This document shows positions 54,962-56,515 of a stretch of 64,000 bases of DNA, piece by piece. Under the pieces are notes generated by a model. The model was not told where the DNA came from and made no database searches. It saw only the letters and a program-made list of their open reading frames with translations. Each line of letters begins with the position of its first letter. Positions within the stretch are counted from its first letter, which is position 1. The stretch comes from Georgenia muralis (GTDB lineage: Bacteria; Actinomycetota; Actinomycetes; Actinomycetales; Actinomycetaceae), in NCBI RefSeq assembly GCF_003814705.1, contig NZ_RKRA01000001.1, forward strand, positions 3,478,776-3,542,775, in the 5' to 3' direction. The translations under genes and the position numbers were made by a program.

Positions 54962-54997
54962 GAGGGGGTCACCACCGGCGAGGTGGTGACCCCCCCT
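54962..54997 (+). terminator. strong hairpin terminator after fadD
   Basis: GAGGGGGTCACCACC (54962-54976) pairs with GGTGGTGACCCCCCTC (54982-54997) around a 5-base loop, 19 bases after the stop. It marks the native end of fadD and lies 34 bases outside the left end of the insertion sequence. Confidence 0.85.
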
Positions 54998-55043
54998 CGT
55001 CGTCGTCGGCGTGGGACGGCGCCGGTGATGCTCCTATTGGTTG

Positions 55044-56270
55044 TCAAGCTGCTTGGAGCCATTGGCGGTAGGCGCGGGCGAGGTCGTCGTCGCGGCGGGT
55101 GCCGCGTTCGATGGTGGAGATGTGCATGGGCCAGACGCCGAAGTGGGCGGCGGCCTGGGTCAGGGTGATGTTCTTGGCCTGTCGGGCGGGGCGCAAGTCC
55201 GCGGTCGCGGGGGCCGTGACGACTCGGGTGAGGTACTTGAACATCTCCCGGGCGAGGGCACGTTTGAGGGTGCGGAGGATCTCTTTGCTCGAGCGGCCTC
55301 TGGCGCGTTGTCGCTGAACGTAGGCGCGGGTGGTGGGGTCGCTGGACATGCGGACCAGGGCGACGCGGTGCAGGGCGTTGTTCGCGGCGCGGTCCCCTCC
55401 CCGGGAGAGCCGGTAGCGGCGGGTCTTGCCCGAGGAAGCGGGCACCGGTGCGGTGCCGCACAGTGCGGCGAAGGAGGCCTCGTTGCTGAGCCGGTCGGGG
55501 TTCGCGCCGGCGGTGATGAGCAGCTGGGCAGCGGTGTCTGGGCCGACGCCGTGGGCGGCGAGCAGACCGGGGTTCATGGACTCCACGACGGTACGGATGT
55601 CGCGCTCGAGGTCAGCGGCCTGACTAGTGAGGAACTCGTGTCGTGCGGCGAGGTCCTTCAACGCGCGCATGATGGCCGCGCCGACTGGGTCGTAGCGGGT
55701 GGTGCGGCTTCGGGACAGTGCGGTGACCAGCTTGGTGTTGGTCATGGAACGGTACTTCTGCCGGATCGAGTCCGGTGCGGTGACCAGGACTTGGTGGATC
55801 TGGTGGATCGTCGCCGTGCGTGCCTTGACCGCGGAGCGGCGGGCCAGGTGCAGGGCGCGCAGGCCGAGGATCTTCTCGTCCTTGGGTGGCGAGGTCGCCC
55901 GGCCGGAGAGCACCGCACGGGCGGCGTGATAGGCATCGATGGGGTCGGACTTGCCCTGGCGGCGGCGGACGGTCTTGTCGGGGCGCAGCACCTCTCGGAC
56001 CTCGAGCCCGCCGGCGGCACATGCCCGGGCGATCCCGGCCCCGTAGGAGCTGGTGCCCTCGATGCCGACCCGCTCGATCGCGCCGTGGCTGTTCAGGAAG
56101 TCGTACGCCGCCCGGTAGCCCGCCGGAGTGGTCGCGAACTCGGCGTCGGCGATCTCCCGCCCCAGCACGCTCACGACAGCCACATGGATGGTCTCGGCGT
56201 GGGTGTCGATGCCTCCGATGACCTCCTCGGCCCCGTCGTCACGGTCGTCATCTCCTGGTGCCGCTGTCAT
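55044..56270 (-). CDS. IS110 family transposase with XRE-like C-terminal extension
   Basis: A 408-residue DEDD-type recombinase. RuvC-like acidic residues are visible: D22 (GGIDTHAETIHVAV), E71 (GIEGTSSYG), D109 and D112 (KSDPIDAYHAARAV). The transposase_20 domain has HGVGPDTAAQLLITAGANPD, FAALCGTAPVPASSGK and RGGDRAANNALHRVAL, with the serine region proposed as nucleophile in IS110 recombinases. The last 50 residues (about 358-405) look like an XRE helix-turn-helix (ITLTQAAAHFGVWPMHISTI), unusual compared with the core family. It appears full length and intact. Confidence 0.94.
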   Translation of the reverse strand: MTAAPGDDDRDDGAEEVIGGIDTHAETIHVAVVSVLGREIADAEFATTPAGYRAAYDFLNSHGAIERVGIEGTSSYGAGIARACAAGGLEVREVLRPDKTVRRRQGKSDPIDAYHAARAVLSGRATSPPKDEKILGLRALHLARRSAVKARTATIHQIHQVLVTAPDSIRQKYRSMTNTKLVTALSRSRTTRYDPVGAAIMRALKDLAARHEFLTSQAADLERDIRTVVESMNPGLLAAHGVGPDTAAQLLITAGANPDRLSNEASFAALCGTAPVPASSGKTRRYRLSRGGDRAANNALHRVALVRMSSDPTTRAYVQRQRARGRSSKEILRTLKRALAREMFKYLTRVVTAPATADLRPARQAKNITLTQAAAHFGVWPMHISTIERGTRRDDDLARAYRQWLQAA

Positions 56271-56473
56271 GCTGGAACCGCCCTTTCGCTGGAGTCGATG
56301 GGGTCGACGCCGGTCGGGACGGTCAGACAGGACACTGGTGAGGAACTGCCAAGCTCTTATCAGGTCATGACCGGCCCGGCCGGTGCCATGCCCGAGGGGC
56401 CGGACAGATCAACTGGAAGGCAACCCAGCAGGGCGCCAGTCAGTAGGCGGGTCACGACCCCTCGGAACACGCT
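56271..56473 (-). ncRNA. candidate bridge-RNA region of the IS110 element
   Basis: About 200 noncoding bases lie between the transposase start and the right end, where IS110-group elements encode their bridge RNA. On either strand a hairpin CATG-N2-ACCGGC-N3-GCCGGT-CATG is present (56366-56390), one of the strongest in the region. Another segment, GCTCTTATCA at 56353-56362, matches 9 of 10 bases of the rebuilt target GCTCCTATCA. RNA production is not shown by sequence. Confidence 0.5.
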
Positions 56474-56515
56474 TCCTATCATCAGTGTCGGTGGTCGGCC
56501 CTAGCGTGACGGTCC

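What the first reader, a model, noticed from the sequence alone, without database searches (positions are those of the whole stretch)
55032..56479. Intact IS110 element with reconstructable empty target site
Both junctions carry TCCTAT (55032-55037 and 56474-56479), 1,442 bp apart, the usual size for IS110. Collapsing the element gives GATGCTCCTATCATC, a dyad with GATG/CATC arms around a CT-containing core. That fits the core-dinucleotide recombination known for IS110. The transposase has all four acidic residues and looks full length, so the element may be active. It lies neatly between a terminator and a promoter.
Basis: partly seen in the sequence, partly recalled or inferred. Interest (0 to 1): 0.7.

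Follow-up and report, generated by a model that had tools for sequence, protein, structure and literature searches.

The report
IS110 element targeting DNA-repair promoters
A small jumping gene in this actinobacterium appears to use its own guide RNA to insert exactly at the control switches of DNA-damage-response genes while leaving those switches readable, and relatives of it in other bacteria hit the same kind of switch.

Summary
The element is a real IS110-group insertion sequence, but its ends and target are not those proposed. Four near-identical copies in the genome all lie at one motif, TG|TCRGTGG-N7-TASNNT, which matches the published RecA-NDp (PafBC DNA-damage) promoter. Element-free matching sites in the closest relative show that the element runs 55028-56485 between a 2-bp TG core (CA when read with the transposase). 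GATGCTCCTATCATC is therefore not the native site; TCCTAT is only terminal sequence of the element. The genome has 185 TGTCRGTGG sites but only 8 with the -10 box at the promoter's spacing; all four copies sit at those, occupying 4 of the 8. The 5' non-coding region folds like a bridge RNA. Its target guides match the flanks locus by locus across homologues (left guide: 41 loci, 0 of 20,000 permutations as good), and its right donor guide matches the element's own end. Relatives in Marihabitans, Mycobacterium, Micropruina and Streptomyces sit at the same promoter type. Bridge-RNA recombination is known; an IS110 lineage whose guide reads the PafBC motif was not found in the papers searched here. 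Promoter function after insertion, and any promoter recognition beyond the guide, are untested.

The parts
55026..55027 (.). TG core dinucleotide at the transposase-distal (right-end) junction
   Evidence: shared by the flank and by element-free sites in G006
55028..56485 (-). IS110-group element proper, 1,458 bp
   Evidence: four copies in the genome aligned at both junctions and element-free matching sites in G006
55028..55038 (-). right end / left donor half (AATAGGAGCAT read with the transposase)
   Evidence: TAGGAGC[AT]T recurs at right ends of homologues
55044..56270 (-). transposase (recombinase), 408 aa, DEDD_Tnp_IS110 + Transposase_20
   Evidence: predicted fold matches IS621 recombinase
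55047..55199 (-). C-terminal extension, residues 358-408, helix-turn-helix-like
   Evidence: four predicted helices; HTH_31 E 3e-4, below its curated cut-off; absent from the two shorter homologues aligned
56306..56472 (-). predicted bridge RNA core, two stem-loops (target loop 5', donor loop 3')
   Evidence: single-sequence fold z -3.14; consensus fold of 10 left ends, 15 of 50 pairs with at least one both-side change kept
56439..56448 (-). left target guide GCCUACUGAC
   Evidence: guide-flank covariation
56410..56416 (-). right target guide CCAGUUG
   Evidence: covariation across homologues; the window's own match is poor, 4 of 7
56351..56360 (-). likely left donor guide AUAAGAGCUU
   Evidence: resembles the right end ATAGGAGCAT (by eye; the homologous stretches are)
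56333..56341 (-). right donor guide UCACCAGUG
   Evidence: 8 of 9 to the reverse complement of the left end; covariation with the left end
56486..56487 (.). TG core dinucleotide at the bridge-RNA-side (left-end) junction
56486..56507 (+). RecA-NDp/PafBC-type promoter TGTCGGTGG-N7-TAGCGT, kept intact by the insertion
   Evidence: L175; consensus in PMC5656591
56516..58294 (+). downstream gene: DEDD exonuclease (RNase_T) with GIY-YIG/UVR-like parts
   Evidence: GIY-YIG and UVR below their cut-offs
54964..54994 (.). terminator-like hairpin left of the element

Best explanation
This is an IS110-group insertion sequence, 55028-56485, that moves by bridge-RNA-guided recombination and whose left target guide encodes the upstream (-26) motif of RecA-NDp/PafBC promoters. 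The guide CUACUGAC pairs with the strand opposite CCACYGAC (other strand: GTCRGTGG), exchange takes place at the CA/TG core, and the element goes in between TG and TCRGTGG. Because the core is restored at both ends, the full upstream motif and the -10 box stay intact next to the downstream gene, while the DNA further upstream is displaced. Shown here by sequence: ends, core, target motif, guide-flank pairing across homologues. Inferred: RNA expression from a circle-junction promoter (TTGACA in the right end, GATGAT-like in the left end), actual recombination, and that the downstream gene stays inducible. That the copies are found at true promoters is most simply explained by guide match plus selection against insertions elsewhere.
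For: 4 of 4 own copies sit at TGTCRGTGG-N7-TASNNT; the pattern with N4-9 has 9 matches in the genome, reversed control 0, 8 of them at N7, 4 of the 8 occupied. Element-free matching sites in G006 fix the TG core at the window and jetA2-like sites, and at two HNH-type sites. Left guide versus flank: 206 of 287 identical in 41 loci, permuted mean 119, sd 6.8, 0 of 20,000; 30 distinct guides 151 of 210 versus 79.5, sd 6.4, 0 of 20,000; other registers 0.16-0.29 versus 0.72. Right target guide 96 of 140 versus 58.5, sd 5.1, 0 of 20,000 (20 distinct guides). Right donor guide 292 of 360 versus 259, sd 4.0, 0 of 20,000 (40 loci). -10 box at exactly N8 in 10 of 17 extension-bearing loci, at no other spacing 3-15, and in 0 of 24 other loci. 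Later check on plasmids: 4 of 4 records at 60% identity or more have TGTCRG flanks, 3 of 4 have the box (partly read by eye). Exactly two WYL-domain matches in the genome, adjacent, as expected for PafB and PafC.
Against: The right target guide of this element fits its own sites poorly (4, 4 and 3 of 7 in three own copies). L076 is a miss for the left guide (2 of 7). 7 of 17 extension-bearing loci lack TAnnnT at N8; L090 and L091 have TA only, and L094, L097 and L099 have TGTCGGT-type flanks without the box. Distant extension-bearing relatives use other targets. Permutations ignore relatedness. No expression or activity data.
Confidence: 0.82

Rival explanations
1. Promoter targeting is active and goes beyond the guide: the C-terminal helix-turn-helix extension, or a promoter opened by RNA polymerase/PafBC, helps choose the site, so that insertion is directed to working DNA-damage promoters.
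For: 185 TGTCRGTGG sites exist but 4 of 4 copies are at the 8 promoter sites, chance 1.5e-6 if sites were equal. The -10 box lies beyond the guide yet recurs at one exact spacing in 10 of 17 loci with the extension and 0 of 24 others.
Against: Selection against insertions in coding sequence would give the same pattern. L094 and L097 matched TGTCGGTR without the box. Extension-bearing distant relatives hit other targets, so the extension does not suffice.
Confidence: 0.13
2. One reading: ends at TCCTAT, CT core, native dyad site GATGCTCCTATCATC.
For: The letters are there.
Against: G006 has no such letters at the matching sites; all four copies carry them as element sequence; 1 of 10 aligned left ends has the repeat.
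Confidence: 0.02
3. The conserved TGTCRGTGG...TA stretch is part of the element, carried as an outward promoter.
For: It abuts the left end in every own copy.
Against: It is present at the matching element-free sites in G006, the spacer differs between copies, and unoccupied examples precede genes that read as recA and sbcD.
Confidence: 0.02

Closest known systems
IS621 (IS110 group) and its bridge RNA (PMC11208160, passages seen; PMC11208158, search listing only; PDB 8wt6/8wt9)
   Same: Recombinase domains and predicted fold, long 5' non-coding end with target loop then donor loop, guides on both strands around a core dinucleotide, core included in the pairing.
   Different: Core CA (CG in some relatives) instead of CT; C-terminal helix-turn-helix-like extension; target is a host promoter motif (that IS621 targets REP sequences is recalled).
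ISEc21 and ISEc11 with seekRNA (PMC11187229, passages seen)
   Same: Guide RNA from the non-coding region; circle-junction promoter; insertion without base duplication claimed for ISEc21.
   Different: Targets described in the passages are not stress promoters; ISEc11 is of the IS1111 group.
IS900 of Mycobacterium avium subsp. paratuberculosis (recalled; inserts near translation starts)
   Same: An IS110-family precedent for a regulatory sequence as target.
   Different: A translation signal, not a stress promoter; the paper search for it returned nothing.
RecA-NDp / PafBC promoter (PMC5656591, PMC6789036, PMC8223512, PMC11804915; passages seen)
   Same: The target site matches tTGTCRgtg - 8 nt - TannnT except for the first, lower-case t.
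   Different: Here it is also the insertion site of a mobile element.

Membership tests
IS110 family, IS110 group | DEDD transposase with DEDD_Tnp_IS110 and Transposase_20 domains | tested here: met
IS110 family, IS110 group | long non-coding region 5' of the transposase, short 3' end | tested here: met
   215 bp (56271-56485) versus 16 bp (55028-55043)
IS110 family, IS110 group | insertion at a dinucleotide core without longer target duplication | tested here: met
   element-free sites in G006; at the window the shared bases are ambiguous by one (CAC)
IS110 family, IS110 group | bridge RNA with target and donor loops that pair with target and donor | tested here: met
   by sequence only:
IS110 family, IS110 group | circular intermediate and RNA expression | not testable with these tools
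   TTGACA and a GATGAT-like box can be read across the junction by eye; needs experiment
IS1111 group | non-coding RNA region 3' of the transposase, subterminal inverted repeats | tested here: not met
   the 3' end is 16 bp
RecA-NDp / PafBC promoter (target) | consensus tTGTCRgtg - 8 nt - TannnT | tested here: met
   4 of 4 own sites, apart from the first lower-case t
RecA-NDp / PafBC promoter (target) | a PafBC regulator in the host | tested here: inconclusive
   two adjacent WYL genes, the only WYL matches in the genome; not tested further
RecA-NDp / PafBC promoter (target) | induction by DNA damage through PafBC | not testable with these tools
   needs expression data

The most novel reading that the evidence does not exclude
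A lineage of RNA-guided mobile elements has evolved to home to DNA-damage-response promoters, reading the -26 motif with its bridge RNA and the promoter itself (its open state, RNA polymerase/PafBC, or the -10 box via the helix-turn-helix extension) with its protein, so that transposition is coupled to the stress response and lands where it does least harm.
Probability: 0.13. Interest if true: 0.85.

Novelty: new variant of a known kind. Interest (0 to 1): 0.62.

Why it matters
It gives a natural case in which a bridge-RNA guide is matched to a conserved regulatory motif with several copies per genome (7-17 in nine genomes of the genus), so site choice by an IS110 element can be read as a strategy: a target that is dispersed, conserved, and left intact by insertion. 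PafBC promoters may be well suited because PafB reads the -26 motif while PafBC inserts itself between the promoter DNA and sigma domain 4 (PMC11804915, passages), so DNA upstream of the motif should matter little (inference). It also supplies natural guide-target pairs with CA and CG cores.

Tried and rejected
Rejected: the TCCTAT ends and the dyad target. Rejected: that L025 is an exception; its right junction is interrupted by a second insertion and the target reads normally beyond it. Rejected: a first guess that the window's right target guide pairs as GUUGAU with GTCGAT (wrong register once homologues were aligned). Rfam gave no relevant match. The 14 loci of other IS110 matches of the genome contain no TGTCRGTG-N8-TAnnnT within the roughly 3.3 kb held for each. 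The extension alone does not predict promoter targeting, and on the tree promoter-targeting rows fall in two places among other rows, so a single origin is neither shown nor excluded.

Rows dropped: of 94 loci placed by tblastn, 4 were second fetches of own copies; of the remaining 90, 41 passed the fixed LE and LTG rule and were counted, three of them own copies; L069 and L150 had an LE but no LTG by rule. The rule itself asks for GAC at the flank, and GAC was not scored. 'Extension-bearing' means that the best tblastn segment reaches residue 400; several of the 24 others are broken genes whose best segment ends early, so lack of the extension is not shown for each. Extension-bearing loci left out of the 17: L025 (nested insertion; its site carries the box), L068, L069 and L070 (no box, by eye), L071, L072, L098 and L101 (site not readable or too near the end of what was held). 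The plasmid set was a later check: 14 of 1,054 records fetched; 2 of 14 passed the rule, the others were read by eye.

Full report
What is there. The window lies in a complete 4.14 Mb chromosome. The transposase ORF 55044-56270 on the minus strand has both IS110 Pfam domains, is related in sequence to the solved IS621 and ISCro4 proteins (E 3.9e-10 and 7.4e-11), and is predicted to share the IS621 fold (mean pLDDT 81.5; Foldseek E 3.0e-12 to 8wt9). The genome holds four copies; the other three differ from the window copy by 1 to 3 substitutions inside the element.

The ends. In all four copies the left side reads TGATGCTCCTAT and the right side TCCTATCATC. The closest relative, G006, whose nearest transposase is only 51% identical, has none of these bases at the matching sites. 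At the window site it reads GGCGG-TG-TCGGTGGTCGG, against CCGG-TG-[element]-TG-TCGGTGGTCGG here. At the jetA2-like site it reads CACCGAC-TG-TCGGTAGGG, against CACCGACTG-[element]-TGTCGGTGGGG. At two HNH-type sites it reads TTCGAGGGCGA-TG-TCAGTGG and TTTGAGGGCGA-TG-TCAGTGG, against TTCGAGGTCGATG and TTCGAGGGCGATG before, and TGTCAGTGG after, the element; these genes are a paralogous family, so one-to-one correspondence is less certain there. The element is thus 55028-56485 with a TG core on either side. The fourth copy (L025) carries a second insertion, flanked by the 8-bp direct repeat CTATCATC, in its right junction, and the target continues beyond it.

The target. What follows the right core is TGTCRGTGG-N7-TASNNT in 4 of 4 copies. 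The RecA-NDp promoter is printed as tTGTCRgtg - 8 nt - TannnT (PMC5656591, one passage seen), the same motif apart from the first, lower-case t. The genome has 9 matches to TGTCRGTGG-N4-9-TASNNT and none to the reversed control; 8 have N7, and the ninth (N5) seems to lie inside a coding region. The eight precede frames that read as recA, sbcD and two HNH-type genes (named by eye from translations), and the four occupied genes: the DEDD exonuclease/UvrC-like gene, a Wadjet JetA2 (PADLOC E 6.6e-155) and two DUF222 HNH-type genes (one scanned; the other its close paralogue by translation). TGTCRGTGG alone has 185 sites in the genome (36 for the reversed control); that all four copies fall on the 8 promoter sites has a chance of 1.5e-6 if the 185 sites were equal. 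Nine genomes of the genus have 7 to 17 such promoters each, against 1 reversed-control match in all nine. Two adjacent WYL genes are the only WYL matches in the genome, as expected for PafB and PafC (the naming is inference).

How the site is chosen. The 5' non-coding region folds better than shuffles (-95.9 kcal/mol, z -3.14, 1 of 200 shuffles as good). Ten homologous left ends give a consensus of two stem-loops with internal loops; 15 of 50 pairs have at least one sequence with both sides changed and the pair kept. With fixed anchors, not fitted to the flank, I took the 7 bases before GAC in the first loop and the 7 bases before GAC in the left flank. In 41 loci 206 of 287 positions are identical, against a permuted mean of 119 (sd 6.8; 0 of 20,000 as good). 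With one row per distinct guide it is 151 of 210 against 79.5 (sd 6.4; 0 of 20,000), with 27, 27, 26 and 29 of 30 identical at positions 3 to 6. Registers one or two bases off give 0.16-0.29 against 0.72. The right target guide also covaries (96 of 140 against 58.5, sd 5.1, 20 distinct guides, 0 of 20,000). The right donor guide covaries with the element's own left end (292 of 360 against 259, sd 4.0, 40 loci, 0 of 20,000); four loci whose left end begins CGTTGA carry guides ending in TCAACG, though L103, whose left end begins CG, carries a guide ending in TG. These permutations ignore relatedness. L076 is a plain miss for the left guide (2 of 7). For the window the guide CUACUGAC fits CCACYGAC with G.U pairs, which also covers the R in TGTCRGTGG; its right guide fits poorly (4, 4 and 3 of 7 in three own copies).

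Other hosts. Among 17 extension-bearing loci with a readable site by rule, TAnnnT lies exactly 8 nt after TGTCNNNN in 10 and at no other spacing from 3 to 15. It is absent at all these spacings in the other 24 loci (Fisher 1.7e-5; 8 of 15 and 1.0e-4 without two of the own copies). Named hosts among the ten are Marihabitans, Mycobacterium, Mycolicibacterium and Micropruina. Against this, L090 and L091 have TA without the last T, and L092, L093, L094, L097 and L099 lack the box. Host genes scanned at relatives' sites: DUF222 in L067, L080 and L092, and below cut-off in L096; a metallophosphoesterase in L100; an F420-type reductase in L091; nothing useful in L060 and L089. As a later check I fetched 14 of 1,054 plasmid records. 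The four at 60% identity or more all have TGTCRG flanks; three (L223, L225, L226) have the box, and all four agree with their left guide (two by rule, two by eye). The ten under 50% identity do not show this target; in seven of them (L228-L234) the flank still resembles the guide by eye. The tree puts promoter-targeting rows in two places. So the targeting belongs to part of the lineage, and the extension does not suffice for it.

Reading. The guide match is well supported by sequence and belongs to the known bridge-RNA mechanism. The surprise is the target. Insertion keeps the upstream motif and the -10 box and displaces only DNA upstream of them. In the PafBC complex PafB reads the -26 motif and PafBC stands between the promoter DNA and sigma domain 4 (PMC11804915, passages), so the promoter may well remain inducible; that is inference. 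Why the element sits only at true promoters although 185 similar sites exist can be selection or active recognition; I favour selection and cannot separate the two. Paper searches for IS110 with PafBC (none) and for IS110, bridge RNA, DNA damage and three further terms (one review, listing seen only) gave no report of this in the library held here, which lacks most subscription journals.

Noticed in passing
L025 (G000:C1:3008500-3013500), right junction of the element copy: A second insertion of about 1.4 kb sits in the end of this copy between 8-bp direct repeats CTATCATC; which IS family it belongs to was not tested.
   Followed up: partly
L176/L027 (G000:C1:4008156) and L179 in G006: A Wadjet-type jetA2 gene stands behind a RecA-NDp-type promoter in two genomes, which suggests an anti-plasmid defence system under DNA-damage control.
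   Followed up: partly
L067, L080, L092, L096, L177: DUF222 (HNH-type) genes recur as the gene behind the targeted promoters in several genera.
   Followed up: partly
whole genome G000: TGTCRGTGG occurs 185 times against 36 for the reversed pattern, far more than the 8 promoter sites account for; not explained.
   Followed up: no
L001-L011, L016-L018: The genome carries further IS110-family groups, one of them with eight equal-scoring matches; their targets were not studied beyond a check for this motif.
   Followed up: partly
L060, L067, L080, L100: Relatives with a left end beginning CG carry a donor guide ending in CG, so the core seems to have changed together with its guide.
   Followed up: partly
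L228-L232 (Arthrobacter and Paenarthrobacter plasmids): A related IS110 group sits at A-rich sites with an A-rich left guide, in three records close to the start of parB-family genes.
   Followed up: no
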